Positions 3,783 to 20,696 of a DNA stretch of 64,000 nt are shown here, in pieces; the stretch's first letter is position 1; every line of letters begins with the position of its first letter. The DNA is from Embleya scabrispora (GTDB taxonomy: Bacteria > Actinomycetota > Actinomycetes > Streptomycetales > Streptomycetaceae), in NCBI RefSeq assembly GCF_002024165.1, contig NZ_MWQN01000003.1, forward strand, positions 62,001 to 126,000. Reading direction: 5' to 3'. The position numbers and the translations under genes are program-made. The notes beneath the pieces were generated by a model that saw nothing but the letters and a program-made list of their open reading frames with translations, ran no database searches and was not told the DNA's origin.

Positions 3783-5675
3783 TCACCGGTCATCCGACCG
3801 TCGCCCGACGCGTCGGCGCAGCCGTTCGGGACGCGGCCGGCGCGCCCTTTGCCCGCATGCGGCGACCGTGTCCGCGTAGGCATGCGGGAAGTCGTGGCGG
3901 TCGAGGCGCAGTCGCACCAGGATCGGGCCCGCGTTGATCGCGTCGGTCGGGTCGGCGAGCCGGTCGAAGAGCGCGTCGAGTGCGCGGCCGTCGGAGATCG
4001 TGATGCCGGTGACGGGTGTCTTGTCGGTGTGGAAAACCTCGGCAAGGCGGTCGTAGTTCCATGGGTGCAGGACGTTGTAGCCGGCGGCGTCGCCGGGCGG
4101 GTAAGGCTTCTTGTAGTAGCACGGATCGATCAGCATCTGTTCGATGCCGTAGAAGTTCTCGTTGTCGAGGATGAAGACCACCGATCGCAATCCCAGGCGG
4201 GTGTGCGTGGAGATCTCCTGGCAGGTCTCCTGGAAGGCGCCGTCTCCGGCGAACACCATGGGTCGGGTGGGCTGTTCCTCTCCATGGCCCAGGACGGCGC
4301 CGACGGCTGCGCCGATCGTCCAGCCGATCGACAACCAGCTGTTCTGGGAGAGGTAGCGGCCTGCGGACAGACGCAGGTTGATCGAGGCCGCCTGTGCGAA
4401 GCCCGTGTCCACCAGGACCGTCCAGGTGTCGTCCGGCCGGGTCGTCAAAAAGCCGTTGACCCGCGCGAACAGGCCGTCATAGGTCAGGTCGCCGGGCGGC
4501 GTATCCCCACTGGTGACCGACGCCCGGAAGGCGGCGGTGTTCCCCGGCACCTCGAGCCCCGCCGCCCGGGCGTCGGCATAGTAGTCCGCTTCGAGCCCGC
4601 CGCGCCCGTACCTGGCCACCAGCGCGTCACGCAGCGCCGGAACGAGCAGGGCCAACCGCACGTCGGGGAAATACGTGGTGCCGACGCTGATGCCGCCGTG
4701 TGCCGCCACCGACCAGTCGGTGCCGACGGTGCGCTCCCCCGAGAGGTTGCCCGAGGTGGTCCAACTGCCCAGGCCGATGCGGCAGTCGGCCCATTCCTTG
4801 AAGATCCGGCGGACCGCGGGATCGGTGGCGTCGCCGTTGTACACCCCGACGAATCGGCGAAGGTTCTCCGAGACGACGGCCTTGGCGCCGATGGTCGTGC
4901 AGTACGGAATCCCGGTCTCCTCCAGCAACGAGATCAGCGAATCCCCGAGCCGGAAGCGGTCGATCTCCTCGCCCACCCACAGGATCGGGCGCGGGCGGTC
5001 GCCGACGCGGTTGCTCTCGATGAATTCGAGGATCGCCTCCACCGCGTCCTCGAGCATGGTCTCGCCGCCCGGCGTCAGGGGGCGTTCCCGGCGTTCGATC
5101 GTGCCGACGGGCTCTGCGCAGGGGGCGTCCCAGAGGTCTTCCAGGATCTCCAGGTAGACGGGGCGGCACTCGGACAGGCAGGCGGTCAGCGCGGTGTCGA
5201 TCTGGAGGGGCGCCAGACCCGGGTTGGAGATCGCTTGCGTGTCGCAGGTGACCTGCCGGAACACGTCCAGGTTGCTCTCGGGGCGGCGGCCCATGTGTGC
5301 GGAGAGCAGGCCGACCGCGCGGTGGTTCTGCCACTGCTCGTATCTCGGCGAGGCGTTGATCGCGATCAGTGGCACGTATTCGACATCGCAGCCGCCGACG
5401 GCGTTCAGCAGGCCGAAGGCGCCGACGCTGTAGGTGACCGCCGCCGCCCCGATCCCGTGCACACGGGCGTAGGCGTCGGCCGCTTGACCGGCGCCACCCT
5501 CCGTGGGGGTGCCGACCCACGCCACGTGCCCCTCGGCCTCCATGGCGTCCAGAAACGGGCCCAGGTGGTCGCCCGGGACCCCGAACAGGTGGGTGATGCC
5601 CAGTTGGCGCAGCCGGTGGAGCAGGTAGCGGGCCACCGTCCAGGACGGCACGGCTGGGGTTTCGTGATGGCTCAT
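3783..5675 (-). CDS. ThDP-dependent decarboxylase, pyruvate/indolepyruvate decarboxylase-like
   Basis: A 630-residue enzyme with the three-domain ThDP fold: an N-terminal Pyr domain with the catalytic-type glutamate at about 59 (PTEGGAGQAADAYAR), a central domain, and a PP domain with the ThDP/Mg motif beginning GDGAF at about 477 and closing near 505 (DNENFYG). It would decarboxylate a 2-oxo acid to an aldehyde or acyloin. The ATG at 5675 is chosen because AGGAG lies upstream; longer readings lack an SD site. It is longer than usual (about 550) because of insertions and a basic C-terminal tail. It lies 105 bases downstream of an amino-acid oxidase on the same strand, suggesting oxidase then decarboxylase on one substrate. 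Substrate unknown; indolepyruvate, phenylpyruvate or a branched oxo acid are possible. Confidence 0.85.
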   Translation of the reverse strand: MSHHETPAVPSWTVARYLLHRLRQLGITHLFGVPGDHLGPFLDAMEAEGHVAWVGTPTEGGAGQAADAYARVHGIGAAAVTYSVGAFGLLNAVGGCDVEYVPLIAINASPRYEQWQNHRAVGLLSAHMGRRPESNLDVFRQVTCDTQAISNPGLAPLQIDTALTACLSECRPVYLEILEDLWDAPCAEPVGTIERRERPLTPGGETMLEDAVEAILEFIESNRVGDRPRPILWVGEEIDRFRLGDSLISLLEETGIPYCTTIGAKAVVSENLRRFVGVYNGDATDPAVRRIFKEWADCRIGLGSWTTSGNLSGERTVGTDWSVAAHGGISVGTTYFPDVRLALLVPALRDALVARYGRGGLEADYYADARAAGLEVPGNTAAFRASVTSGDTPPGDLTYDGLFARVNGFLTTRPDDTWTVLVDTGFAQAASINLRLSAGRYLSQNSWLSIGWTIGAAVGAVLGHGEEQPTRPMVFAGDGAFQETCQEISTHTRLGLRSVVFILDNENFYGIEQMLIDPCYYKKPYPPGDAAGYNVLHPWNYDRLAEVFHTDKTPVTGITISDGRALDALFDRLADPTDAINAGPILVRLRLDRHDFPHAYADTVAACGQRARRPRPERLRRRVGRRSDDR

Positions 5676-5780
5676 TGGTGGTTCTCCTGATTCGTTGTCG
5701 CGGCGCCGGGGGTTCGACGGCCGCGTTCCCGAGGAGCGGGCAACACCCGGTTCCGCCCACACGGGCGACTGCCGGCCCCG

Positions 5781-7459
5781 TCAGCGCAGTCCCTGGGTCA
5801 GCGCGACGGAGTCGGGGACGACGACCTCCTCCGAGACGGTGAGGGGCATGCTCCCGAGGATCTGGTGCACGACGTAGTGGGCCGACATCACCGCACCTTC
5901 CTGCCAACCCGGCAGCGGGGAGATCTGGTCACCGGTGACGTGGAACGCGTCGCCGCCCTCTGGTTGGAGCAGCTGCTTGTACGCCTGCCGGTGGTCCTCC
6001 CAGTCCGGATGCCAGTCCGCCCAACCACCCAATTGATAGGGCACCTTGTGCCAGGCGATGGAGATGCCCTTGTCCTGCGGCACGAGGGTGGTGTCGGCGA
6101 ATTCGGGATGCAGCCGCGCGGCGCCCTCGCGCGCCAGGGCGAGGCGTTCGTGCGGCGCCAGATCGCCGAGGCTTCGCGCGTCCTCCCCGTAGTTGTACGC
6201 GCCGGTGAGGGTTCCCTTGTCGGTGAAGTAGTCGTTGGACGGGTACCACAGCTGCGTGATGTTGTGGCCGATCCAGCTGATGCCACCGTAGATTCCCTCG
6301 CCGGCGTCTTTGCCGCCTTCGAGGTCCCCTTCCCAAAAGCGCCGGTTCGCCTGCCAGCCGACCTTGCAGGTCTTCTCGAACTCCACGGATTCCAGGGCAC
6401 GTTCGAAGGCGTCGGAGAAGTTGCTGCGGGAGAGGTGCCTGAGTACGGGGATGGGGATGCTGCTGACGCAGTGTCGGGCGTCGACCCGAAACGTTTCGCC
6501 GTCCTTGACGTAGGTGACACCGACGCGGGAGCCGCCGGGAGCGATGCCGATGTCGGTGACCTCGGCACCCGGCACGATGGTGGCGCCGACCCGTTCCGCC
6601 TCGCGGGCCAGTGCCCGGACGATGTGGTCCATGCCGCCGACCGGCTGGAACATCGTCGCCTGCCACTCGTAGTCGACCGGCTGGTAGAAGCGGTTCCTCC
6701 AAAGCCGGAGTTCACCAGATCTTCGAAGGCCAGGGCCGGCGCGGGAACGGGGAAGTCCTCGACGACGGGGTCGTGGAGGTAGCCGCAACGGGTGGAGCCG
6801 GTGTACTTCCCATCGTCGTCGAGCGCCCCGAACACGCGCAACAGGTCGCGTAGTTCGTTGGTGAACGCGTCTCGCTCCACCAGGCTCCGGGCGAGTGTCG
6901 CGGCGATGTACCCGCGCGTGTCGTTGGCCACGCGACGATTGCGCCACACCGCGTCCCCGCGCGGCGGACGCACCAGACACGCCGTGCTCTCCATGACGTA
7001 CGGCTCCAGTGCGACGCCGAAGTCGCGGCAGTATCGCAGCACCCGGCGGTGATGGTAGGGAATGCGGCCGGGACCCAGGTTGAGGTACATGTCGTCGTCG
7101 AAAGCACAGGTGTGGGTGAGTACGGGCCGCCCGGTCGCAGTGTCGATCTCGTGGAGTCGGTCGCCCTTGCGGACGGTACGGCTACGCCCTCCGATCCGAT
7201 TCTGCGCCTCCAGGACGGTGACCTCGTGGCCGAGGGCGCCCAGTTCGTAGGCGGCGGTCAGCCCGGCGACGCCGGCGCCGAGGATCAGCACCTTCAGGCG
7301 CTCGATCGGCGCGACCTTCGTCGGCCGCCGGGGACCGACCCATCCGGCCGCCGCCGGTACGGACCGGCCGATCATGGCCGCGCGCAGCGCATGTACGTCC
7401 TCGCCGAGAGCGTCGGCGCGGGGCATCGGCTCGGGGGATGGCTCGTTGGACGTGGTCAT
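5781..7459 (-). CDS. FAD-dependent L-amino-acid oxidase, frameshifted
   Basis: Flavin amine oxidase of about 559 residues if one frameshift is repaired. The first part (7459 to about 6697) has the Rossmann FAD motif GAGVAGLTAAYELG, then RIGGRSRT and the LGPGRIPYHHRRVL segment seen in bacterial L-amino-acid oxidases. The second part resumes in another frame with NRFYQPVDYEWQATMFQPVG and ends with a C-terminal FAD contact (SAHYVVHQILGS). Restoring one base in the GGAGGAACC stretch at about 6692-6700 rejoins the two as GFGG-NRFYQPV. It is either a true pseudogene or a sequencing error; both halves are otherwise well preserved. The start at 7459 is favoured over 7465. Paired with the downstream decarboxylase. 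Substrate not deducible. Confidence 0.8.
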
Positions 7460-7882
7460 CGGCATCTCTCTTTCCGACACGGAGTGCTCGGCACCACCGA
7501 TGGTGAGGACAGCCCGGGACGACTTCGGATCGCAGGCCCGCGAGCGCCCGTGAACGTTCCGATCCTCCCGAGCCGCCGGCCCGCCTTCGTGCCACGCTAG
7601 GCGGCTCCATGTCCCGGGCGACCGGGGCCACGGTCCCGGAGGCGTCCCATCCCGTGGCCCGAGGCGGACCGGGGATCCCGCTTCAGTCCCCGGGTGCGGA
7701 GTTCGTGCCCTACCCGCGTCGTCTGCGGTGCTTGCGAGGACCGGGGCACGTGCACGGGCGGACGCGGTCGGCCGTGACGCCGCGCGGTGCCCGAGGTGCT
7801 CGCGCGGCTTGGCGCGCCCCCGATGCGATCGGGCGGCGGGGGTGGGGACAGCGCGGGTACCGGACATTGCCCGGTGGGTCGG
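7460..7882. other. Intergenic between two minus-strand units
   Basis: About 420 bases with no credible gene on either strand. It should contain the promoter of the oxidase/decarboxylase pair; no clear boxes are visible. Confidence 0.4.
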
Positions 7883-9703
7883 TCAGGGCTCGACGACGGC
7901 GAAGTCGGGGTCGAGGGTGTCGAGCAGGGCGACGAGCCGGGCGAACACCTGCGGGTCGCCCTCGACCTCGACACCGTCGAAGCCCTTGCCCGCCAGCACG
8001 CCCAGCAGTTGGGCCTTGGTCAGGGTCAGGGACAGGCCCACCGGCGTGGCCGGGTGCTCACCGTTCTCGGAACTGCGGTACGTCAGTGCCCCGTTGGACA
8101 GCGTGATGCGCCAGGTGCGGTTCTCGTCGGTGACCGTCCAGTCCATGGTGAGCTTCTCGTCCCACGCGCGCGGCCCGTCGACGCGAATGGCGAGGGAGTC
8201 GATGAGCATGTCGACGGTCAGGGCCATCGCCATCTCGGGGTTGGTGGTCTCGATCGACGTGTGCGCGATGCGCCCGCGCAGTTCCTGGGCGCCCATCAGG
8301 TAGAAGTTGCGCCAGGTGCCGTTCTCCGCGCCGTGCCCGAGCCTTTCGTACACCGACGCGAGCGCCTCCTTGGCCGCGGAGTTCGACGGGTCGGCGAAGA
8401 CCGCGTGCGCCAGCAGGGTGGCGGCGAAGCGCAGGTCGCCGGAGTCGGCGTACTCCCGGCCCTTGGCGGTCAGCGCGGCCACGCCGCCGTAGTCGGCGGC
8501 GAAGCGCTTGGCCTGCTCCACAGGCGGGTGCTCCCACAGGTGGGCGGGGTTGCCGTCGAACCAGCCCATGTAGCGCTGGTAGATCGCCTTCACGTTGTGG
8601 GAGAGCGACCCGTAGTAGCCCCGGTTGGCCCAGCGGTCGGCCACCGCCGGCGGCAACCGGATGTGCTCGGCGATCTCGATACCGGTCAGCCCCCGGTTGG
8701 TCATGCGCAGGGTCTGGTCGTGCATGTACGCCCACATGTCCCGCTGGCTCGCCAGGTGGTCGACGATGCGGTCCCGGCCCCAGGTCGGCCAGTGGTGCGA
8801 CGCGAACGCCACGTCGGCCTCGTCCCCGAACAGCGCGATCGTCTCGTTCAGGTAGTGCGCCCAGATCCGCGTGTCGCGCACCACCGCGCCGCGCAACGTC
8901 AGGATGTTGTGCATGTTGTGGGTCGCGTTCTCCGCCATGCACAACGCCCGCCGGTCCGGGAAGAGGAAGTTCATCTCCGACGGCGCCTCGGTGTCCGGCG
9001 TCATCTGGAAGACGATCCGCACACCGTCGACCGTCTCCTGCTGACCCGTGTGCGTGATGTCCACCGTCGGCGGGATCAACGTGATCGTCCCCGTGGAGGT
9101 CGTCATGCCGAGCCCGCAGCCGATCTGCCCGGCGGGGCCCTTCTCCAGTTCGGCGCCGTACATGTAGACGGCGCGGCGGGTCATCGCGCTGCCCGCGTAC
9201 ACGTTCTCCGCCACCGCGTGCTCCAGGAACCCGGCGGGAGCCAGAATCGGCACCCGCGCGTGCCCGTGCGGCAACACCCCCCGCGCGCCCCCGAAGTGGT
9301 CGACGTGCGAATGCGTGTAGATCAGCCCCGTAACCGGCCGGTCGCCCCGATGCTCCCGGTACAGCGCCAGGGCGGCCGCCGCGGTCTCCGCGGAGATCAG
9401 CGGGTCGATCACGATCACACCCGCGTCGCCCTCGACCAGCGTCATGTTCGACAAGTCGAGGTTGCGGACCTGGTAGATGCCCTCCGTCACCTCGAACAGG
9501 CCCTGTTTGTTGCACAGCCGGCCCTGCCGCCACAGGCTCGGATGCGCGGTCTCCGGGCACTCCCCGTCCAGGAAGGCGTACGCGTCGCCGTCCCAGATCA
9601 CCCGCCCGTCATCGGTACGCGCCACCGCCGGCGACAACGCGGCGACGAACCCGCGCTCGGCATCCTCGAAATCCGTCCGGTCGGAAAAGGCGAGATCAGT
9701 CAT
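7883..9703 (-). CDS. Alkyl-sulfatase-type metallo-beta-lactamase-fold hydrolase
   Basis: A 606-residue enzyme of the SdsA1/BDS1 alkylsulfatase family (type III sulfatases). The metallo-beta-lactamase core carries THSHVDHFGG at 130-139 (His131, His133, Asp135, His136 metal ligands). It is followed by the acidic AENATHNMHN segment and a second ligand-type segment (SHHWPTWGRDRI), a dimerisation region, and a C-terminal SCP2-like domain from about 490. Family members release sulfate from alkyl sulfates such as SDS and are often periplasmic, but no signal peptide is seen here, so it is probably cytosolic. The start at 9703 is by homology, since no SD site is visible; an in-frame ATG at 9721 would add six residues. 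Monocistronic, with an AT-rich promoter region directly upstream. Confidence 0.9.
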   Translation of the reverse strand: MTDLAFSDRTDFEDAERGFVAALSPAVARTDDGRVIWDGDAYAFLDGECPETAHPSLWRQGRLCNKQGLFEVTEGIYQVRNLDLSNMTLVEGDAGVIVIDPLISAETAAAALALYREHRGDRPVTGLIYTHSHVDHFGGARGVLPHGHARVPILAPAGFLEHAVAENVYAGSAMTRRAVYMYGAELEKGPAGQIGCGLGMTTSTGTITLIPPTVDITHTGQQETVDGVRIVFQMTPDTEAPSEMNFLFPDRRALCMAENATHNMHNILTLRGAVVRDTRIWAHYLNETIALFGDEADVAFASHHWPTWGRDRIVDHLASQRDMWAYMHDQTLRMTNRGLTGIEIAEHIRLPPAVADRWANRGYYGSLSHNVKAIYQRYMGWFDGNPAHLWEHPPVEQAKRFAADYGGVAALTAKGREYADSGDLRFAATLLAHAVFADPSNSAAKEALASVYERLGHGAENGTWRNFYLMGAQELRGRIAHTSIETTNPEMAMALTVDMLIDSLAIRVDGPRAWDEKLTMDWTVTDENRTWRITLSNGALTYRSSENGEHPATPVGLSLTLTKAQLLGVLAGKGFDGVEVEGDPQVFARLVALLDTLDPDFAVVEP

Positions 9704-9765
9704 GGCAACTGCAATAACCAAAAAGGCATAGAACTATACAAAGTTGTCCTTCTGCGTCACGATCC
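9704..9765 (-). promoter_or_regulatory. AT-rich upstream region of the sulfatase gene
   Basis: Immediately upstream of the sulfatase start is a short AT-rich tract containing TTGTATAGTTCTATG on the minus strand, which offers a TATAGT -10-like hexamer close to the gene. The short leader and lack of an SD site would fit leaderless or weakly led translation. Inference only. Confidence 0.35.
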
Positions 9766-10342
9766 GGCCGGGGCACCACACCCAACCGTCCGTCGCCCCC
9801 GGCGGCCCCTCACCACTCTCGCGGGCTGGACACGCTTTCCGTCGAGCGTGCGCCGGTGCCGCCCGACGGCGCGATCGGCCGTGTGTCGTCGAGCGATGCC
9901 GCGGGCTCGGCGGGCAGTGGCAGGTCGAGGTGGACGTTCTCCCCCGCGTTGCCATTGAGCGGGGCACGACGGCAGCGACCCGGGGACTCGGGGATTCACA
10001 AGCGCACGAGCGTTCGACGCGTTCACTCCTTCGGTCGGCTGTCGGCTTTTGCCGCGCCGTGTCGCGGCAAGAAGCCCGGGCACGAAGAGCGGCCGTGAGA
10101 TCCGGACCATCGGTCCGAGGATGGCGGTCGCCGAGGGCGGCCGGGCCGGTGTGGTCGTACGCGGAGCGAGGGTTCCGCAATTCGTGGATCAACCACCGTG
10201 TCGCACAAGCGTGTTCGATTCGGCGGCCGGTGTCCGTCGCGTGCCCGACCACTGGAGATCGGCGGCGCCCCGCCCGCGCGAATGTCGGTGCGTCGCGTCG
10301 ATCCGTGGGGCGAACGTCCCACCGGAGACGAAGGAGAAGATG
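9766..10342. other. Intergenic upstream of the cyclodipeptide operon
   Basis: About 580 bases without a credible gene. It should hold the promoter of the methyltransferase-CDPS-P450 operon. No repeats or clear hexamers noted. Confidence 0.4.
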
Positions 10343-11164
10343 ATGGATTCCCAGTTCGACACGGTCGTTGCCGCGTACGAGCGCAGCATGGACGAGATGC
10401 CGTTTCGCGAACATGTCGAGGCGTTCAGTTTCCTGAAGGCGGTCGGTGAGGTCGCCGCGTGCGACGTGCTCGACCTCGGCTGCGGCAGCGGGCTGTACGC
10501 GCGCCGTTTGTGCCACGCGGGGGCGATCCGGGTGCTGGGCATGGACGAGTCGAGCGCCATGGTCGAGCACGCCCGCCGGCGCGAGGAGCGCGAGGGGTTG
10601 GGTGTGGAGTACCTGGCGGCGGACGCCACCGATCCGGCCACCGGCGCGCTGCCGGGCATCGCCGGGAGGTTCGACGTGGTCACGGCCGTATACGTGTTGC
10701 CCTACGCGCCCACCCGCGCGGCGTTGGACGGCTTCTGTGCCACCGCGCGGCGGGCGCTGCGCGCGGAGGGAGGGCGATTCGTGGCCGCGGTCCTCAATCC
10801 CGAGTTCTCCACGGATCCCGAGTGGTATCGCGACTACGGCATGTCGCTGAGTGCGCGACCGTCGCCGGTGGAGGGCACTCCGGGGCACCTGCGGGCGTGG
10901 GTCGGGCCGGACGTCCTGGAGTTGGATTTCTTCCGCTGGTCGAGGGCGGCGCACGAACAGGCCCTGGCGGCGGCGGGATTCGACCGGATCACCTGGATCC
11001 GTCCGACCGTGTCCGAGCAGGGCCGCGCGAGGTACGGGGAGGCGTTCTGGGCCAACTACCTGGCCTGCCCGCACGCGTTGATCGTGGACGCCCAGGCGGG
11101 ACCGCGCGACGAACCCCCCGTCGACGCCCCGGCGAAGAGCATCGATTCCGCAACGGACAAGTGA
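10343..11164 (+). CDS. Class I SAM-dependent methyltransferase
   Basis: A 273-residue Rossmann-fold methyltransferase with motif I DLGCGSG at 44-50 and the acidic residue after strand 2 (GMDESSAMVEHARRR). Strand 4 is at FDVVTAVYVLPYAP. A GGAG site lies 6 bases before the ATG at 10343; an ATG three bases earlier is too close to it. It is the first gene of an operon, 17 bases ahead of the cyclodipeptide synthase. The likely job is N-, O- or C-methylation of the diketopiperazine or of its P450 product, by analogy with other CDPS clusters. The acceptor cannot be read from sequence. Confidence 0.85.
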   Translation: MDSQFDTVVAAYERSMDEMPFREHVEAFSFLKAVGEVAACDVLDLGCGSGLYARRLCHAGAIRVLGMDESSAMVEHARRREEREGLGVEYLAADATDPATGALPGIAGRFDVVTAVYVLPYAPTRAALDGFCATARRALRAEGGRFVAAVLNPEFSTDPEWYRDYGMSLSARPSPVEGTPGHLRAWVGPDVLELDFFRWSRAAHEQALAAAGFDRITWIRPTVSEQGRARYGEAFWANYLACPHALIVDAQAGPRDEPPVDAPAKSIDSATDK

Positions 11165-11181
11165 AGAGAGAGGTTGTCCCC

Positions 11182-11979
11182 ATGAAGTCGACGACCACGG
11201 GCCGGGCACCCCACCGCCCCCTGACGCGTGTTCCGCACGATGGCGCGGCCCCGTCGGATCGGGTCGATCCCGGCGGGTTCCGGGTGGAGGGGCTCGATCT
11301 GCACAGTCATCGCCTGTCCGACCGCCACGGCACGGTCGTGCTGGGTCTGTCGCCGTACAACTCCTTCTACTCCACGCAGACCGTGACCGCGCTGTGTCGG
11401 GACGCCGCAGCTTCCTTCGACGACGTGCACGTCCTCCTCCCGGGGGCGCCCGAGACGGCCCTGCGCCAGATCTGCGCCGGGAAACCGCCGCGGCGGGCCG
11501 TCCTACGTTCCAAGAGGGTCATCCACAACATGCGCAACGTGGCGCGCCGCACCCTGGCCGAATGCGGGGTCTCGGACACGGATTCCCGGGTCCACGTGAT
11601 GACCCGTTTCGCCGGGCATCCGCGCTACCGGGAGATCCGGGGCCGTGTCGAGGCCGCGTATCGCACCTGTGCGCCGATGCGCAACGCGGTGCACACGATG
11701 ACCCGCGCGGCCCTGACCGGCTTCGTCGATGCCGAGCCCACTCCGGCGCAGATGGAGGCGAACGCACGCTACATCTTCGCCGAGGCCCCGCTGTTGCTCG
11801 ACGCGCCCGCCGTGTTGGGGTGCGATCGCGCGCTGTTCGTGTACCACCGCCGCGTGCCCCTGTACGACGTGGTGGCCGGCGGCCGGGTCCCCGGCCTCGA
11901 CGTCGGACCCGGACACGTCCTGTCGGTGTTGACCGACGAGCGGGATCACCCCACCCCCGAGACGAGGCAGGACCGATGA
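11182..11979 (+). CDS. tRNA-dependent cyclodipeptide synthase (CDPS), NYH subfamily
   Basis: A 265-residue enzyme that should use two aminoacyl-tRNAs to make a cyclic dipeptide (2,5-diketopiperazine). Family hallmarks: the nucleophile-loop segment LGLSPYNSFYS with catalytic Ser57 and Asn60; YIFAEAP with Tyr197 and Glu201 in the catalytic YxxxE arrangement; and VYHRRVP with Tyr221-His222. Asn60, Tyr221 and His222 place it in the NYH rather than the XYP subfamily. There is an extra N-terminal stretch of about 35 residues compared with AlbC-type enzymes. The ATG at 11182 has GAGAGAGG upstream; a GTG at 11161 overlapping the methyltransferase stop is possible. Its stop overlaps the P450 start (ATGA), so the two are translationally coupled. 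Amino-acid specificity cannot be deduced by eye. Confidence 0.92.
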   Translation: MKSTTTGRAPHRPLTRVPHDGAAPSDRVDPGGFRVEGLDLHSHRLSDRHGTVVLGLSPYNSFYSTQTVTALCRDAAASFDDVHVLLPGAPETALRQICAGKPPRRAVLRSKRVIHNMRNVARRTLAECGVSDTDSRVHVMTRFAGHPRYREIRGRVEAAYRTCAPMRNAVHTMTRAALTGFVDAEPTPAQMEANARYIFAEAPLLLDAPAVLGCDRALFVYHRRVPLYDVVAGGRVPGLDVGPGHVLSVLTDERDHPTPETRQDR

Positions 11980-13202
11980 CCACGATTCCCGAGGACCTGG
12001 TCTGGCCGGACTCGTTCCCCAACCGCGGCCACGGCCTGCCTCCGGAGATGTTCGATCTCCTGCGGCGGGAGCGTCCGGTGGCCCGGGTGGAGTTCCCCTC
12101 CGGGCACCGGGCGTGGCTGGTGACCCGCCGCGCCGACATCACCATGATCGGTTCCAGTCGGCGGTTCTCGCGCGACATGACGTGTCCCGGTGGGCACCGC
12201 ATCGCCGGAGACGACTTCAACAGCGTGCCGGGCGGCATCTTCAACCTCGATCCCCCGGCCCACACCGCGGTCCGGCGCGTCGTCCAGCCGTTCTTCAATC
12301 CCGCCGCCGCGGTGGCCCTCGAACCTGCCGTCGCCGCGGCCGCGCTCGACCTGGTCACCACGCTGCGGGACGGACCCAACCCGGCCGACCTGCACCGTGC
12401 GTACGCACACCCGCTCGCCGCGACAATGGCGTGCGACCTCATGCGGGTGGCCCCGCGGCAGCGCCGCAAGATCGTGCCCCGTCTGCGTTCCCAGGTCGAC
12501 TACAGCACCGCGCCCGCACGTATCGAGACCTCGACCCGGTGGATGCTCGACTTCGCCGCCGAGGTCATCGACGCCAAGAGCGCCGACCTCAAGGACGAGC
12601 GGGAGGCGCGGGACCCCGTGGAGGCGTTGATCCGGGCACGCCGCGACGGGACGATCACCCGCGAGCAATTGCACGCGACGGTGATGTACCTGTTCGTCAC
12701 CTCGGCCGAACCGGTCACGGGGCCGGTGACCACGGGCGTCTACACCCTGCTGCGGCACGGCGAGCAACTCGCCCGCCTACGGCGCGACCCGGCGCTGTGG
12801 CCCACCGCGGTCGCCGAGCTCCTGCGCCTGCACCACAACGGCATGACCTCGATGCCGCGCGTCGCACTGACCGACACACAGCTGCACGGTGTGCTCATCC
12901 GGGCCGGCGACGCCGTCGTCACCCCCTGGGTGGCCGCGACCTGGGACCCCGAACACTACGCACAGCCCGAGCGGTTCCGCCTCGACCGAAGCACGCGGGA
13001 GGATCCGGCCGTCACCTTCGGCACCGGCCCCCACTTCTGCCTCGGCGTCAACGTCGCCCGGATGTACCTGAAGACCGCGCTCTCGACCCTGTTCCAGCAT
13101 CTGCCGGACCTGGCCCTGGCCGCCAAACACGAGGACATCGCCTGGGAACCGGATACCTACTTGTTCACCCGACCCGTGGAACTGCCGATCACCTGGTCCT
13201 GA
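11976..13202 (+). CDS. Cytochrome P450, diketopiperazine-tailoring candidate
   Basis: A 408-residue class I bacterial P450. The heme-binding loop is FGTGPHFCLG with Cys355 as thiolate ligand; the K-helix ExxR is ELLR at 281-284; the PERF segment is at 331-334. The I-helix reads FVTSAEPVTG (240-249): where most P450s have A/G-G-x-D/E-T, this has T-S-A-E-P, so the proton-relay threonine is replaced by proline. Such changes are reported in P450s that do coupling or other non-standard chemistry; that link is inference here. Start at 11976 overlaps the CDPS stop by four bases. No ferredoxin or reductase gene is adjacent. Expected to oxidise, couple or rearrange the cyclic dipeptide. Confidence 0.9.
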   Translation: MTTIPEDLVWPDSFPNRGHGLPPEMFDLLRRERPVARVEFPSGHRAWLVTRRADITMIGSSRRFSRDMTCPGGHRIAGDDFNSVPGGIFNLDPPAHTAVRRVVQPFFNPAAAVALEPAVAAAALDLVTTLRDGPNPADLHRAYAHPLAATMACDLMRVAPRQRRKIVPRLRSQVDYSTAPARIETSTRWMLDFAAEVIDAKSADLKDEREARDPVEALIRARRDGTITREQLHATVMYLFVTSAEPVTGPVTTGVYTLLRHGEQLARLRRDPALWPTAVAELLRLHHNGMTSMPRVALTDTQLHGVLIRAGDAVVTPWVAATWDPEHYAQPERFRLDRSTREDPAVTFGTGPHFCLGVNVARMYLKTALSTLFQHLPDLALAAKHEDIAWEPDTYLFTRPVELPITWS

Positions 13203-13607
13203 GTCGGCCGTGCCGGGGGTCGGCGGGCCGTCGGCGGCCGGTCGGCGATGCACACCCGTGACGAACGCCGGTCGCGGGCCCGGCCTCGGACGTCGCCGGC
13301 GTGGCGGTCATGGCACCACGACACAACCAATCGTATGGTTGCTTCATGGAAGACCCCCGCACCCCGACTCGCCCACCCGGGCGCCATCGCCGCCCGGCCG
13401 TCCCCCAGCCCACCGACGACGAGACGCGCTTCCCGGCCGACGCCCCCGCGCACGTCCGGGATCGGCAAAAGCCACCTCCGGCGCCGCCGGACGTCGCGGA
13501 AGGAGGGCACGTGATGTCACCCGGTGCGTGACGACCGTTGCGTGAACCGCGGCGCGGACGGAAGATGCGGTCAGGCCGCACGGGTGGCACGCGGACCGGG
13601 GGGATGT
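13203..13607. other. Intergenic with a small inverted repeat
   Basis: About 400 bases between the P450 and the regulator. CAACCA-ATCGTA-TGGTTG at 13324-13341 is a 6-bp-arm inverted repeat and could be an operator or include a -10 element (TATGGT) for the regulator transcript. A proline-rich ORF of about 60 codons begins just after it (near 13346), but its composition does not look like a real protein. Confidence 0.4.
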
Positions 13608-15017
13608 ATGCCCAAGCGCGAACCCAACACACAACTGGCCGCGCTGCTGACCGAGATCGGGTGGAGCGCCGGCGACCTCGCCCGCAGGGTCAACGCGGCC
13701 GGCGCCGCACACGGGGTTCGGTTGAGGTACGACCGCACGGCGGTGGCGCACTGGCTCGGCGGAACGCGCCCTCGCCACCCCGTCCCCGCGCTGGTCGCCT
13801 CCGTCCTCAGTCACGGCAGCGGGCGGTCGATATCACCGGAGGAGATCGGGTTGACGCCCGTCCCCGCACCCGGACCACTCGTCCGGCGCCGCCGACCCGA
13901 AGCGGTCGACGCCGCGCAATGCCTGCGAGACCTGTGCCGGGCCGACCTCGACCCCACCCGTCACGCCGCGCTGGCCCGCAGCGTCTACTCCCCCACCGCA
14001 GTCGACGGGCGGGCGTCCGCGTCTCGTGCGCCGACGAATCCACCTCGCCTCGTCGGCCGGGTCGACGCCGGCCGCGCGGCCTCGCGCACCGCACGCGAAC
14101 TGACGCAGACGTTCGCCGACCTCTCGGCCCGCCACGGCGGCCGACGGATCCGGGCCTGGCTCGCCCTCTACCTCGCCCGGGACGCCGGACACCTGCCCGC
14201 CGCCTCGGATTCGCCCCGACTGCACGCACAACTGCTCGTCGACGTCGCGCAACTGACCCACCTGCTCGCCGAAACGACGGCGGACTCCGGTCACCCGGGG
14301 CTGGCCCGCGCCTACTTCGAGATCGCCCTCGACCTCGCCGACGAAGCCGACGACGACCGCATGCACGCCATCACACTGCGCGCGATGAGCGTCCAGGCCA
14401 TGCGCCTGGGACACCACGAACACGCCTTCCGCCTGGCCGACGCCGCGGTGGAGCGCGCGGGCACCGCCCCCGACGCCGCCGTCCTGGCGTTCCTGCTCAC
14501 CCAACGCGCCCACAGCGGCGCCATCATCGGACGAAGGCACCGGGCCAGAGCGGATCTGCGGGCAGCCGAACACCACCACGACCGGTCCACGGCCCTGCCC
14601 GGCCCGTTCACCTCGTACACCCCCGCCGCGCGACACTTCCGCAGCGGCCAGGCGCTGCGGGCCCTCGGCGAAATCCCCAACGCCATCGCCTGTCTCGAGG
14701 CCGCCCGAAGCCGCGGCCCCCTCAACCGGCGGGCGACCGCACTCACCGAGGCCACCCTCGCCGAAACCCTGGCCGACATCGGACACCTCGAAGCGGCCTG
14801 CGCCCACTGGAACGTCTTCCTCGACCTGCGCCCCCATCTGGACTCCGCCGAGATCGAACGAGCCCGCGCCCGCATGCACGAAGCGCTGCACCGCTTTCCG
14901 CACCAACGCGACTGCACCCGCCTGCGACAACGCGAACAAGCCCTGGAGTCCCCCACCGCGTCGAGGTCCGCCCCACCCCGAGCCGACGCCGCACCCGGGC
15001 ATTCGGCAACGACCTGA
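13608..15017 (+). CDS. Helix-turn-helix regulator with TPR-like C-terminus
   Basis: A 469-residue protein. Residues about 8-75 resemble the XRE-type DNA-binding start of actinomycete regulators (LAALLTEIGWSAGDLARRVN, then the WLGG motif). From about 160 to 430 it is helical and repetitive with TPR-like pairs (LARAYFEIALDLADEADDDR, FRLADAAVERAG, ALGEIPNAIACLEAAR). The C-terminus is low complexity. The start at 13608 follows a G-rich SD site. This architecture is common in Streptomyces regulators of development and secondary metabolism. Same strand and 405 bases past the P450, so it is a candidate controller of the diketopiperazine operon, though it has its own upstream region. The ligand or partner is unknown. 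Confidence 0.75.
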   Translation: MPKREPNTQLAALLTEIGWSAGDLARRVNAAGAAHGVRLRYDRTAVAHWLGGTRPRHPVPALVASVLSHGSGRSISPEEIGLTPVPAPGPLVRRRRPEAVDAAQCLRDLCRADLDPTRHAALARSVYSPTAVDGRASASRAPTNPPRLVGRVDAGRAASRTARELTQTFADLSARHGGRRIRAWLALYLARDAGHLPAASDSPRLHAQLLVDVAQLTHLLAETTADSGHPGLARAYFEIALDLADEADDDRMHAITLRAMSVQAMRLGHHEHAFRLADAAVERAGTAPDAAVLAFLLTQRAHSGAIIGRRHRARADLRAAEHHHDRSTALPGPFTSYTPAARHFRSGQALRALGEIPNAIACLEAARSRGPLNRRATALTEATLAETLADIGHLEAACAHWNVFLDLRPHLDSAEIERARARMHEALHRFPHQRDCTRLRQREQALESPTASRSAPPRADAAPGHSATT

Positions 15018-15541: not shown

Positions 15542-16894
15542 TCAGGCGATGCGGCGGTTGAGGCGACTGTGGTAGCGGACGGCTGAGACGATTCCGTCGG
15601 CCTTTTGCACGAAGCCGACGAGGGGGCCCGGTGTCCCGTCGTCGGAGAGTGTGATCAGGCAGTCGGGTCCGGCGAGCGCGACCCGGTCCGCGCCCTCCAA
15701 CTCGATGACGTACCCGCCCTCGCGGATGGTCGCGCCGTTCGCGACGATCGCCATCTCGCCGTGGCGCGAGCCGGGGACGATCGAGATGGTGCCGTAGAAG
15801 CCGCAGTCGTACGTTCCCCGCAACGCGGACGCCAGATCGGCGGGTATCGGCGCCGCGCTCGGGGTTGCGCGGGAGACGCCCGCGGCGTCCAGAATGGTCT
15901 TCTCCACTTCGCTCACGATCCCCCCGCCGTGCAGTGAATTGGTCAGGACCGCGTAGGACAGGCCAACCGAGGGCATGAGCACCATTCGGGAGGCGTATCC
16001 GATGGTCAGACCGCTGTGTGAGACGACCCGGTGACCGCCGAGTTCGTCGAGGTGCCAGGCCAAACCGATGTCGTGGCCTTGGATACCCTGGCCGGCCAGC
16101 GGCTCGAACAGCCGCCGGGGAGCAGCGTCGGAGAGCGACCACGCGGCGTACCGCAGCAGGTCGGCGACGTTGGAGATCACCCCGCCGCCCGGTACGTCCC
16201 AGCCGGGGAGTTGCCAGTGGCGTTGCCAACCGCGGTCGATCAGGAGTTCCGCGGAGCCGTCGGCGGCGCGGCCGTGTGGCGCGGCCACGCGGTGGAAGAT
16301 CGCCTCGTCGGCCGAGGTGCCGGTGATCTCCATCCCGGCCGGGCCGATCACCAGTTCGCGCAACAGATCGGCGTAGGGGCGACCGGTCGCGCGCTCGACC
16401 GCGGCGGCGGCCAGCATGATGCCTGGGCCGCTGTAGGTGAAGTCCGTCCCCGGCTCGAACATCAGCGGCTGGTGGATGAAGTGTCGTAGGGATGCCTGGA
16501 TACTGTCGTCGCAGTGGTCGGCGAGTATCCGGGGCGCGTCGGCGATCATGTTCTGTGCGTCGATGCCGGACGTGTGCGTGATCGTGTGGCGCAGGGTGAT
16601 GCGCTCGTCGATGCCCGAGCCGGCGTCGAACAACGGCGCGACGGGTGAGTCGAGGTCCAGGGCGCCTTGCTCCAGCAGACGGCCGATGACGGCACCGAGC
16701 AGCGTTTTGGAGATCGATCCCACCTGGAACAGGGTGTGGGGATCGACCGCGATCGGGTGGGCCACGTTGGTGACGCCGTAGCCGGTCGTCAGTGTCCGCC
16801 CGTCGAGGGTGACTCCCACCGCGACACCGGGGACGTGGTGCTGCGCGATCAGTTCCGGGACAACGGCATCGAGCCGGGCGTGCAGGTCGGTCAC
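15542..16894 (-). CDS. Beta-lactamase-fold serine hydrolase / peptidase
   Basis: A 450-residue class C beta-lactamase/D-aminopeptidase/esterase-fold enzyme. The nucleophile motif SxxK is SISK at 60-63; the YxG-type tyrosine is in TYSGPG (Tyr154); the HxG element (SHSG) lies near 300. A C-terminal beta-barrel-like domain of about 120 residues follows. No signal peptide, so cytosolic. GTG 16894 is chosen because AAGGAG lies 8 bases upstream. It is the last gene of the peptide ABC importer operon, 47 bases after the permease, so it probably hydrolyses an imported peptide, ester or D-amino-acid compound. A role as an antibiotic-resistance enzyme is less likely given this context. Confidence 0.85.
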   Translation of the reverse strand: MTDLHARLDAVVPELIAQHHVPGVAVGVTLDGRTLTTGYGVTNVAHPIAVDPHTLFQVGSISKTLLGAVIGRLLEQGALDLDSPVAPLFDAGSGIDERITLRHTITHTSGIDAQNMIADAPRILADHCDDSIQASLRHFIHQPLMFEPGTDFTYSGPGIMLAAAAVERATGRPYADLLRELVIGPAGMEITGTSADEAIFHRVAAPHGRAADGSAELLIDRGWQRHWQLPGWDVPGGGVISNVADLLRYAAWSLSDAAPRRLFEPLAGQGIQGHDIGLAWHLDELGGHRVVSHSGLTIGYASRMVLMPSVGLSYAVLTNSLHGGGIVSEVEKTILDAAGVSRATPSAAPIPADLASALRGTYDCGFYGTISIVPGSRHGEMAIVANGATIREGGYVIELEGADRVALAGPDCLITLSDDGTPGPLVGFVQKADGIVSAVRYHSRLNRRIA

Positions 16895-16941
16895 GGCGGC
16901 TTCTCCTTGGATGGGGGTTCGTCGCGCTGCCATGGCGTGGG

Positions 16942-17868
16942 TCATGCCCCGACGGCCGTGCGGCTGCGGGGGTCCAGTTGGTCACGAAGGGCGTCGCCGA
17001 GCAGGTTGAACGCGAGCACGAGCGCTACGAACGCCAGCGCGGGATACGCCGCGAGCCATGGCTCGGTGAGCATGTACTGCTGCGCGGTCGAGAGCATGCT
17101 GCCGAAGTCGGCGTCCGGGGGCGCGACGCCGAAGCCCAGGAAACTGAGTGCCGCGTAGGCGCCTTCGGCGGTGGACAGGTTGATCGCGGTCATGATGATC
17201 AACGGCGAGCTGATGTTCGGCAGGACGTGGCGGTACATGATCCACCACCGGCCGCGACCGCACAGCCGGGCCGCGTCGATGTAGCTGCGTCCGGAGACTT
17301 CGATGGTCGCTCCCCGGGCGATCCGGGCGAAGCGGGGAATGATGACCAGCCCGATGGCGAGTGCCGCGTTGAGGAGGCCGCTGCCCGCGATCGCCAGTAC
17401 GAGGATGGCGAGGAGGTATTCCGGGATCGCGAACAGCAGATCGATGATGCGCGAGAGCACCCCGTCGGTGATCCCGCGCAGGAAGCCCGCGGCGGTCCCG
17501 ATCACGGTTCCCACCACGATCGCGAACCCGACCGCTGTGAGGGCGGCTTGGATGGCGGGGCGGGCGGCGGTGATCACCCGGGAGAACTGGTCGCGGCCCA
17601 GCGCGTCGGTGCCGAACAGGTGGCTGCCGGAGGGTCCCTGGAGTCGTGGTCCGACGTTGAGCTCGTTCGGTGAGTAGGGGGTGATCGCCGATCCGAGGAT
17701 CGCCGCGAGTACGTAGAGCACGAGTACGACGAGGGCCGTGTTGGCGAAGACGCCGCGGATCGGCCGGCGGCGACCCGCCGCGCTGCTTCCCTTGGTGCCG
17801 GGAGGCGGGTCGGACGCTGCGGTGGACGCCGTGTCGGAGGGTACGGCGGAGGCCGGAATCGAAGTCAT
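16942..17868 (-). CDS. ABC transporter permease, DppC/OppC type
   Basis: A 308-residue inner-membrane permease of a peptide/nickel-type importer. After a polar N-terminus (about 1-35) it has six predicted membrane segments, the PYSPNELNVGPRLQGPS-type periplasmic stretch, and the HLFGTDALGRDQFSRV signature typical of DppC subunits. The EAA-like coupling loop near AARLCGRGRWWIMYRHVLP contacts the ATPases. AGGA lies 8 bases before the ATG. It follows the DppB-type permease by 9 bases. Confidence 0.92.
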   Translation of the reverse strand: MTSIPASAVPSDTASTAASDPPPGTKGSSAAGRRRPIRGVFANTALVVLVLYVLAAILGSAITPYSPNELNVGPRLQGPSGSHLFGTDALGRDQFSRVITAARPAIQAALTAVGFAIVVGTVIGTAAGFLRGITDGVLSRIIDLLFAIPEYLLAILVLAIAGSGLLNAALAIGLVIIPRFARIARGATIEVSGRSYIDAARLCGRGRWWIMYRHVLPNISSPLIIMTAINLSTAEGAYAALSFLGFGVAPPDADFGSMLSTAQQYMLTEPWLAAYPALAFVALVLAFNLLGDALRDQLDPRSRTAVGA

Positions 17869-17877
17869 GGCGAAGTC

Positions 17878-18825
17878 CTAGGTGCGCGCGATACGACGGT
17901 CGATGAGCGGGAGCACGAGGTCGACGACGAGGTTGCCCAGGATGAACGCCGCGGCGAGCACCAGCGCTTGACCTGTCACCTGGGTGAAGTCGCGCAGCTT
18001 GATGGAGTCGAGAATGCCGCGGCCGAGGCCCGGCAGGCTGAAGATCTGTTCGACGATGAAGAGCCCGCCGACCAGGAGTCCGAAGATCATGCCGATCAAC
18101 GTGAGTACGGGGGGCAGTGCCGCGCGGAGGCCGTACAGATAGGTGACGCGCCATTCGGCGATGCCGTTGCTGCGCGCGGTCGAGGTGTACGGCGCGGACA
18201 GCACTTCGAGCATGGAGGATCGGGTCATCTGCATGATCAGTGGCGCGGTGGGGACGCCCACGGCCAATGCCGGCAGCAGCATGGTTTGCAGGTTCGCGAT
18301 CAGGCCGTCGCTGATGGGGATGTAGCTCGGTGAGTACAGATTCGTGAAGTAGTGCGTGGCGATGTAGAGCGCGAACGCACCGGATACGAAGGCGGGAAAG
18401 GCGAACGCGATCAGCAGTGGCAGCCGTACGAGCCATACCCGGGCGCTGCGTGCGCGGGTGGCGACGTACACGCCGGCGGGAATGCCGACGGCGATGGCGA
18501 TCAGCAGGCCCATGAGCGCCAGTTCGAACGAGACGGGGGCCTGCTGAAGGATCACGTCGCGGTTGGCCTGGCCGGAGTAGGGCGAGGTGCCGAAGTCGCC
18601 GCGGATGGCGTCGCCCAGCCAGCTCAGGTACTGCTCGAAGACCGGTCGGTCGAGGTGGAGCGAATGTCTGATGTTCTCGAGCGTCTCCGGCCCCGCCTTC
18701 GGGCCCGCGATCAGCAGTGCCGGATCCCCGGGGGTGAGGGCGCGGCCGGCCATGAACACCAGTGCGGAGAGCACCAGGAGGACGGCCAGCGCGCCGGTCA
18801 GCTTGCGTATCGTGTAGATGATCAT
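17878..18825 (-). CDS. ABC transporter permease, DppB/OppB type
   Basis: A 315-residue permease beginning MIIYTIRKLTGALAVLLVLS, the usual DppB start with one N-terminal membrane helix. Then comes the GDPALLIAG periplasmic segment and a five-helix permease core with the coupling loop at YTSTARSNGIAEWRVTYLYG. The start at 18825 overlaps the ATPase stop (ATGA), which fixes it; a much longer open frame upstream is a shadow of the ATPase gene. It forms a heterodimer with the DppC-type protein encoded downstream. Confidence 0.92.
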   Translation of the reverse strand: MIIYTIRKLTGALAVLLVLSALVFMAGRALTPGDPALLIAGPKAGPETLENIRHSLHLDRPVFEQYLSWLGDAIRGDFGTSPYSGQANRDVILQQAPVSFELALMGLLIAIAVGIPAGVYVATRARSARVWLVRLPLLIAFAFPAFVSGAFALYIATHYFTNLYSPSYIPISDGLIANLQTMLLPALAVGVPTAPLIMQMTRSSMLEVLSAPYTSTARSNGIAEWRVTYLYGLRAALPPVLTLIGMIFGLLVGGLFIVEQIFSLPGLGRGILDSIKLRDFTQVTGQALVLAAAFILGNLVVDLVLPLIDRRIART

Positions 18826-19841
18826 CGGACCGCCTCGCTCGAGGTCGACGAGACCGTGGTGAGCACCCCGGGCTTGATGCAGCGGACGAAGTGGTCGGGG
18901 CGTTCCTCCACCAGGGCGGGCAACGCCTCCCGGCACCGGGCCTCGACCGCGGGACACCGGGCGGCGAACCGGCAACCCGTGGGCGGATCGACGGCGCTGG
19001 GAGGTTCGCCTTCGAGGACGATGCGCCGCACGCCGGCCTCGGCGTCGCCGGGGAGGCGGGGTTCGGTGGAGCGCAGAGCCACCGAATACGGGTGCAGCAA
19101 CCCGGTGTCGAAGTCGGTGGCCGGGGCGATCTCGACCAGTTGTCCGAGGTACATCACCGCGACCCGGTCGCTGAACCTGCGGACGGCCCGCAGGTCGTGG
19201 GAGATGAACACGTAGGCGACGCCGGTGCGTTCCTGGAGCCGCTCCAGCAGTTCCAACACCTGGGTCTGCAAGGACGCGTCCAGCGCGGTGACGGCTTCGT
19301 CGAGCAGGATCAGCTCCGGTTTGGCGACCACCGCGCGTGCCACGCATACCCGCTGTTGTTGTCCACCGGACAACTCGTGGGGATAGCGGTCGGCATACTC
19401 CTCGGTGAGACCGACTTCCTCGAGGGCCTCGAGAAGGCGCCGGTCTCGTGTGGCCCGGTCGACGCCGGGAAGGGCTTCGGCGATGCTCTGGCGCACGGTC
19501 ATGCGCGGGTCCAGTGCACTGGCCGGATCCTGGAACACCGCCTGGACCACGCCGCGGGCGTCCGGGGTGCCGGCGACGGCGGCGGCGCCTCCGACGTGGA
19601 CGGTACCGACGTCGGGTCGTTCCAGTCCCAGGATCACCCGCCCCAGGGTCGATTTTCCGCACCCGGACTCCCCGACGATTCCCAGGGTTCGGCCGGCGTC
19701 CAGGCTCAGGCTCACGGAGTCCACGGCGTGGATGTGGCGAGGGGGGCCACCGAGCCTGGCCCGGCGAGCCTTGAAGTACTTGCGCACGTCTTCGACCCGT
19801 AGCACGCGGCGGGGGGCGCCCGCCGCCGTCGGTCTGGTCAT
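18822..19841 (-). CDS. ABC transporter ATP-binding protein, DppF/OppF type
   Basis: A 339-residue nucleotide-binding subunit. Walker A GESGCGKST lies near 60, Q-loop QAVFQDPASALDPR, signature LSGGQQQRV, Walker B LILLDEAVTALD, and the switch histidine in ISHDL. Note DEAV rather than DEPT after Walker B. The C-terminal oligopeptide-transporter domain includes GCRFAARCPAVEARC, the cysteine-rich segment typical of OppD/OppF proteins and able to hold an Fe-S cluster in some members. It is coupled by 4-base overlaps to both neighbours. Confidence 0.93.
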   Translation of the reverse strand: MTRPTAAGAPRRVLRVEDVRKYFKARRARLGGPPRHIHAVDSVSLSLDAGRTLGIVGESGCGKSTLGRVILGLERPDVGTVHVGGAAAVAGTPDARGVVQAVFQDPASALDPRMTVRQSIAEALPGVDRATRDRRLLEALEEVGLTEEYADRYPHELSGGQQQRVCVARAVVAKPELILLDEAVTALDASLQTQVLELLERLQERTGVAYVFISHDLRAVRRFSDRVAVMYLGQLVEIAPATDFDTGLLHPYSVALRSTEPRLPGDAEAGVRRIVLEGEPPSAVDPPTGCRFAARCPAVEARCREALPALVEERPDHFVRCIKPGVLTTVSSTSSEAVR

Positions 19842-20692: not shown

Positions 20693-20696
20693 CGCG

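What the first reader, a model, noticed from the sequence alone, without database searches (positions are those of the whole stretch)
10343..13202. Compact methyltransferase - cyclodipeptide synthase - P450 operon
Three coupled genes encode an NYH-type CDPS with intact catalytic residues, a SAM methyltransferase and a P450. The product should be a methylated, oxidised diketopiperazine. The combination with the methyltransferase first, an extended CDPS N-terminus and an unusual P450 I-helix does not match any cluster I can name.
Basis: partly seen in the sequence, partly recalled or inferred. Interest (0 to 1): 0.8.

Follow-up and report, generated by a model that had tools for sequence, protein, structure and literature searches.

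The report
Three-gene cyclic-dipeptide cassette with own regulator
An actinobacterium related to Streptomyces carries a small portable set of genes that should join two amino acids into a ring, oxidise it and add a methyl group; the same set sits in at least seven other genomes, I found no report of its product, and its oxidase belongs to an unstudied branch with an altered active-site helix.

Summary
Window 10343-13202 encodes a SAM methyltransferase (MT), an NYH-type cyclodipeptide synthase (CDPS) with every catalytic residue, and a P450; the CDPS and P450 genes overlap by 4 nt.

The cassette is not unique. The same MT-CDPS-P450 order occurs in seven other genomes (P450 84-88% identical), with DNA homology running from the MT start to the P450 stop, under purifying selection. 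The Streptomyces sp. AW19M42 ortholog is, by inference, CDPS 72 of Gondry 2018: expressed in E. coli, no product seen.

Pocket residues match no characterised enzyme in the published table. A tree puts the CDPS with CDPS 77 (Leu-Val/Ile/Leu); grouping with proline-motif Trp enzymes is rejected (AU p 0.0003).

The P450 belongs to a branch found only beside CDPS genes (11 of 11), whose I-helix mostly has acid-proline in place of acid-threonine. The MT is nearest to ToxA-type N-methyltransferases.

New here: an NsdA-family regulator lies near the cassette in 6 of 8 loci, and a conserved 17-bp element precedes the MT in 8 of 8.

Best reading: a regulated cassette for an oxidised, methylated, probably aliphatic diketopiperazine. 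New variant of a known kind.

The parts
10010..10026 (+). conserved non-coding element GCGTTCGACGCGTTCAC (two CGTTCR-type half sites, 9-bp period); candidate operator/promoter element of the cassette
   Evidence: found upstream of the MT in 8 of 8 cassettes (one with 1 mismatch); 0-2 other exact copies per genome; some of these lie beside other NsdA-family genes
10343..11164 (+). class I SAM methyltransferase, ToxA-like
   Evidence: Pfam PF13649 2e-17; profile of the clade hits ToxA 8rdl at 2.7e-53, next hit outside the ToxA-like entries 2e-16
11182..11979 (+). NYH-type tRNA-dependent cyclodipeptide synthase; pockets P1 VGLPMLLF, P2 MAAGRVP
   Evidence: PF16715 6e-39, TIGR04539 147 bits over cut-off 45; catalytic residues complete; tree; fold nearest YvmC
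11350..11352 (+). codon of the catalytic serine (Ser57; Ser37 of AlbC)
   Evidence: alignment to AlbC
11976..13202 (+). cytochrome P450 of a CDPS-dedicated clade
   Evidence: PF00067 2e-26; in 395 Streptomycetaceae genomes all 11 matches at E<=1e-80 lie beside a CDPS; heme loop FGTGPHFCLG and ELLR intact
12708..12713 (+). codons of E245-P246 in the I-helix, where P450s usually have acid-threonine
   Evidence: alignment of 8 orthologs and second-tier relatives
13608..15017 (+). NsdA-family TPR-like regulator, putative cluster-situated regulator
   Evidence: NF053720 280 bits, cut-off 75; homolog within 3 kb of the cassette in 6 of 8 loci, none in 14 other CDPS loci; few homologs per genome

Best explanation
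A compact, apparently portable biosynthetic cassette for an oxidised and methylated 2,5-diketopiperazine, probably built from aliphatic amino acids (Leu/Val/Ile type). Steps: (1) the CDPS loads an aminoacyl group from tRNA onto Ser57, transfers it to a second aminoacyl-tRNA and cyclises the dipeptide (supported by homology and intact residues; amino acids inferred). (2) The P450 oxidises the ring or a side chain with electrons from general ferredoxins; with Pro where the proton-relay Thr normally sits, proton delivery should come from water, the retained Glu245 or the substrate (inferred). (3) The ToxA-like MT methylates a ring nitrogen or a hydroxyl created by the P450 (inferred). (4) An NsdA-family regulator controls the cassette, probably by acting at the conserved direct-repeat element upstream of the MT (inferred from co-occurrence).
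For: Conserved three-gene cassette in eight genomes, DNA homology running from the MT start to the P450 stop, different flanking genes, purifying selection. Catalytic residues complete. Pocket mapping validated: L003/L051 (same genus as the window genome) gives exactly the published CDPS 77 motifs, L121 those of CDPS 75, L118 those of CDPS 67. CDPS tree: window clade in a starred 19-row clade with CDPS 77, sister to the YvmC/S. haemolyticus cyclo-Leu-Leu branch; grouping with the CDPS 75 branch rejected, AU p 0.00026. CDPS 77 makes cLV, cLI, cLL. Nearest same-order relative L103 (MT 55%, CDPS 35%, P450 45%) has CDPS 77-type pockets. P2 MAAGRVP shares MAAGR with the Leu enzyme YvmC. All 11 strong P450 relatives are CDPS neighbours. 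Regulator and element statistics.
Against: No product is known. The AW19M42 ortholog (by inference CDPS 72) gave none in E. coli. The window clade sits on a long branch (1.28) and its P1 differs from that of CDPS 77 at four of eight positions, so the amino-acid prediction is weak; P1 'Pro-Leu/Met' resembles Trp-using CDPS 75. P450 reaction and methylation site cannot be read from sequence. Two of eight loci lack an adjacent regulator in the DNA held.
Confidence: 0.55

Rival explanations
1. The CDPS makes a tryptophan-containing cyclodipeptide (cW1X type) and the P450 couples it to a nucleobase or dimerises it, with the MT methylating the adduct, as in guanitrypmycin-type pathways.
For: P1 has Pro at AlbC position 67 and Leu/Met at 119, like CDPS 75 (LGVPLLLA, cyclo-Trp-Pro). 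CDPS-associated P450s often do nucleobase transfer or dimerisation on Trp substrates (PMC7954767, PMC10092475). The MT resembles ToxA, which by my own knowledge acts on a purine-like heterocycle.
Against: The tree separates the window CDPS from the branch that holds CDPS 75; AU p 0.00026. The solved CDPS-linked P450s CYP121 and PtmB score far below other P450s (about 1e-37 against 2.6e-53).
Confidence: 0.2
2. A cyclo-Leu-X product is aromatised or N-hydroxylated by the P450 in the manner of CypX (pulcherriminic acid), and the MT caps the resulting hydroxypyrazine, giving a methylated metal-chelator-like molecule.
For: The CDPS clade is sister to the cyclo-Leu-Leu branch. A P450 of family TIGR04538 next to a CDPS of that branch (L052; CDPS L020) has the same acid-proline replacement, ATEPADKT. 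A ToxA-like MT would suit a heteroaromatic substrate.
Against: The window P450 scores 90 bits against a cut-off of 500 for TIGR04538, so it is not a CypX ortholog; acid-proline may be convergent.
Confidence: 0.2
3. The cassette is decaying or inactive, like the ortholog that gave no product.
For: CDPS 72 and several other NYH enzymes gave no product in E. coli. S. uncialis also carries a broken second cassette.
Against: dN/dS 0.14-0.43 for all three genes, open frames and all catalytic residues kept in eight genomes. The authors suggest wrong start codons for the inactive enzymes.
Confidence: 0.05

Closest known systems
CDPS 72 of Streptomyces sp. AW19M42 (Gondry 2018, PMC5816076)
   Same: Ortholog of the window CDPS, 73% identical, in the same MT-CDPS-P450 cassette; identity inferred because that genome holds a single CDPS
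   Different: Tested alone in E. coli without product; P450 and MT not studied there
CDPS 77 of 'Streptomyces scabrisporus' (makes cLV, cLI, cLL; PMC5816076)
   Same: Same starred CDPS clade; its pocket motifs are found exactly in a genome of the window's genus (L003/L051)
   Different: 36% identical; P1 LGFPWLVF against VGLPMLLF; no match to the window P450 or MT in 19 kb around it in L051
YvmC-CypX (cyclo-Leu-Leu, pulcherriminic acid; P450 family TIGR04538)
   Same: CDPS-P450 pair; CDPS on the sister branch; acid-proline I-helix in a family member; P2 MAAGR shared; nearest fold in the PDB
   Different: P450 outside TIGR04538 (90 of 500 bits); no MT described in the YvmC-CypX gene set
Guanitrypmycin (gut), guatyromycine (gym), naseseazine-type CDPS-P450 clusters
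   Same: CDPS plus P450; the five-gene gut operons also have an MT (PMC10092475)
   Different: Five-gene gut operons carry cyclodipeptide oxidase genes, absent here; CYP121-like P450s have GAGVIST and NNMGN motifs that are not found here
ToxA-type N-methyltransferases (PDB 8rdl, 5jdy)
   Same: Full-length homology, far ahead of any other solved MT
   Different: Different pathway context; substrate unknown here
NsdA/NsdB regulators (NCBIfam NF053720)
   Same: Family membership well over cut-off
   Different: Below the equivalog cut-offs of NsdA and NsdB; located beside a biosynthetic cassette

Membership tests
NYH cyclodipeptide synthases | CDPS domain, catalytic Ser37/Tyr178/Glu182 and N40, Y202, H203 (AlbC numbering) | tested here: met
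   PF16715 134 bits, TIGR04539 147 bits; residues S N Y E Y H
cW1X (Trp, proline-type P1) CDPS group | Pro at fourth P1 position and phylogenetic place with CDPS 73-75 | tested here: not met
   Pro present, but a clade with the CDPS 75 branch is rejected, AU p 0.00026
CDPS 77-like Leu-using group | phylogenetic clade with CDPS 77 | tested here: met
   19-row clade, support 99/98
CDPS 77-like Leu-using group | P1 motif LGFPWLVF | tested here: not met
   window P1 VGLPMLLF, P2 MAAGRVP
CypX-type P450 (TIGR04538) | score over curated cut-off 500 | tested here: not met
   90 bits; a true member, L052, gives 503
CYP121/gym-type P450 | GAGVIST I-helix and NNMGN motif | tested here: not met
   window TSAEPVT and FNLDPP
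Naseseazine, guanitrypmycin and bicyclomycin P450s | sequence clade with the named enzymes | not tested
   named sequences were not held, apart from PtmB 8yxt and CYP121 in the PDB
Cytochrome P450 superfamily | heme Cys loop, ExxR, fold | tested here: met
   FGTGPHFCLG, ELLR; model pLDDT 82, Z 42.5 to SgvP 4mm0, rmsd 2.5 over 384 residues
ToxA-type methyltransferases | full-length homology with ToxA as clear best match | tested here: met
   8rdl 3.5e-30 by phmmer, 2.7e-53 by profile
ToxA-type methyltransferases | N-methylation of an azapteridine | not testable with these tools
   needs an assay
NsdA family regulators | NF053720 over cut-off 75 | tested here: met
   280 bits

The most novel reading that the evidence does not exclude
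The P450 clade (T-[G/S]-x-[E/D]-P helix, HHNG after ExxR, always beside a CDPS) carries out a diketopiperazine oxidation not yet described, by a proton-delivery route without the usual threonine, on products of a CDPS branch whose tested ortholog was silent in E. coli, and the pathway is switched by an NsdA-family cluster-situated regulator through a definable 17-bp direct-repeat site.
Probability: 0.3. Interest if true: 0.7.

Novelty: new variant of a known kind. Interest (0 to 1): 0.45.

Why it matters
It names a CDPS-P450-MT lineage with no reported product that I could find, suggests why it may have been missed (the ortholog was scored inactive in E. coli), gives a testable amino-acid prediction that contradicts the simple pocket rule, and points to a CDPS-dedicated P450 clade with a rewired I-helix. 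The linked NsdA-family regulator and conserved site give a practical handle for switching on the cassette if it is silent, and perhaps other NsdA-linked operons.

Tried and rejected
Trp prediction from the proline-type P1: rejected by tree and AU test. 'Extended N-terminus' as a feature: unconserved and disordered. A larger cluster: no flanking biosynthetic gene was found shared among orthologs. L170 as a bicyclomycin reference: no P450 in the 16 kb fetched. TIGR04538 membership: 90 of 500 bits. Fold search of the P450: many rows tied around Z 40 with macrolide and other Streptomyces P450s, so no functional hint; no CDPS-linked P450 that I could name was among the 50 listed, which excludes nothing. 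Papers naming the other host strains: only Gondry 2018 was relevant. Direct repeats upstream of the MT at 8-nt minimum: none reported by the tool; the half-site repeat was read by eye from the eight-way alignment.

Full report
Observation. The three genes are at the stated coordinates: methyltransferase 10343-11164, CDPS 11182-11979, P450 11976-13202, all on the + strand. Pfam and NCBIfam assign them as a class I SAM methyltransferase, a tRNA-dependent cyclodipeptide synthase and a P450. Aligned to AlbC, the CDPS keeps the catalytic Ser, Tyr and Glu and the Asn/Tyr/His that name the NYH subfamily. The P450 has the heme loop FGTGPHFCLG and the ExxR. The window lies in an 11-Mb Streptomycetaceae genome with this one CDPS; a genome of the same genus carries a CDPS with pocket motifs identical to CDPS 77 of 'Streptomyces scabrisporus', so the genus is probably Embleya (inference).

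Distribution. All have the same order MT-CDPS-P450 with P450 identity of 84-88%. At the DNA level the similarity runs from 10332-10344 to 13197-13204, with a gap at the MT-CDPS junction; my gene comparison found no shared flanking gene, although a regulator was found later (below). Pairwise dN/dS is 0.19-0.24 for the MT, 0.33-0.43 for the CDPS and 0.14-0.20 for the P450. In about 395 Streptomycetaceae genomes the P450 ortholog occurs in four. So this is a rare, portable, selected cassette, not a private oddity.

Already touched in the literature. Gondry et al. 2018 (PMC5816076) expressed 42 CDPSs in E. coli; number 72, from Streptomyces sp. AW19M42, gave no product. That genome as held here contains a single CDPS, the cassette one, so CDPS 72 is the ortholog (inference). 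The authors report that most inactive NYH enzymes sit on one actinobacterial branch and suggest wrong start codons. I found no report of the product of this cassette in the open papers searched.

Which amino acids. I mapped the published pocket positions (P1 33-35-65-67-119-185-186-200; P2 152-155-156-159-204-206-207) on more than 100 CDPSs. The mapping reproduces published motifs exactly for CDPS 75, 67 and 77. The window has P1 VGLPMLLF and P2 MAAGRVP; orthologs have VGVP[LM]LLF and MTA[AT]RVP. No characterised enzyme of the published table matches. By the simple rule, Pro at position 67 with Leu/Met at 119 would suggest Trp. The tree says otherwise: the window clade lies within a 19-row clade (99/98) with CDPS 77, which makes cLV, cLI and cLL, and that clade is sister (98/89) to YvmC and the S. 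haemolyticus cyclo-Leu-Leu synthase. Holding the window clade together with the CDPS 75 branch is rejected (p 0.00026); holding it directly with the cyclo-Leu-Leu branch is also disfavoured (p 0.018). The nearest folds are YvmC and the S. haemolyticus enzyme. I therefore predict an aliphatic cyclodipeptide at about 0.5, given the long branch.

The P450. Every P450 within E 1e-80 in those genomes lies next to a CDPS (11 of 11). In the orthologs the I-helix reads T-S-A-E-P; second-tier members (40-48% identity) read T-G-x-[E/D]-P in most, with S or A replacing P in two. The usual consensus there is A-G-x-[D/E]-T (own knowledge). ExxR is followed by a clade motif HHNG. The window P450 is not a CypX-family member (90 of 500 bits), yet a true member of that family next to a CDPS on the cyclo-Leu-Leu branch also has E-P at this place. 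Loss of the threonine suggests substrate- or water-assisted proton delivery; the reaction itself stays open.

The MT. ToxA is by far the nearest solved relative. Related MTs accompany four second-tier CDPS-P450 loci (L045, L046, L103, L104). L103 even has the same gene order, and CDPS 77-type pockets. By homology the MT may act on a ring nitrogen of a heterocycle; this is inference.

Regulation. The gene downstream, 13608-15017, is an NsdA-family TPR regulator (280 bits, cut-off 75). Homologs lie within 3 kb of the cassette in 6 of 8 loci, in three different arrangements, and in none of 14 other CDPS loci, while each genome holds only 4-12 homologs at 1e-15; with an assumed 0.5% chance per locus this gives about 4e-13. 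Upstream of the MT all eight loci share GCGTTCNACRYGTKCAY, with one mismatch in L014. Exact copies are rare: 12 in 60 Mb over seven genomes, 7 of them cassette copies. Of the others, one in S. lushanensis lies 74 bp from its best NsdA homolog, and one in the window's genome lies upstream of what look like mevalonate-pathway genes beside an NsdA paralog, with a one-mismatch copy before a second gene there (gene names there were read from the sequences, not tested). The pattern was drawn from the eight loci, so only the hits outside them are independent support. In S. uncialis a one-mismatch copy precedes a second MT (70% identical), followed by a fused remnant of CDPS and P450 and an NsdA homolog: a broken second cassette.

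Verdict. A real, conserved, probably functional pathway of a known kind, with an uncharacterised P450 clade and a previously unnoticed regulator-element pair.

Noticed in passing
window 5600-7867, - strand: Flavin amine-oxidase gene with a single frameshift: the N-terminal half is in one frame, the rest continues in another; pseudogene or assembly error.
   Followed up: partly
window 7883-9721, - strand: Alkyl sulfatase (metallo-beta-lactamase fold with dimerisation and C-terminal domains), divergent from the cassette.
   Followed up: no
L166:5607-10028: S. uncialis second cassette, broken: element, intact MT (70%), fused remnant of CDPS start and P450 I-helix region, then NsdA homolog.
   Followed up: partly
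L164:3358-17067: In the window's genome an NsdA paralog sits beside what look like mevalonate-pathway genes, with two copies of the element upstream of gene starts.
   Followed up: partly
L049:9581-10552: CDPS with Arg in place of the catalytic Ser beside a short MT fragment: a decayed relative.
   Followed up: no
L047:9695-10603: G417 also carries a CDPS fragment lacking the N-terminal half, in a genome with two other CDPS-P450-MT loci.
   Followed up: no
window 15542-22220, - strand: Beta-lactamase-family gene next to peptide-type ABC transporter genes (permease, ATPase, family 5 binding protein).
   Followed up: no
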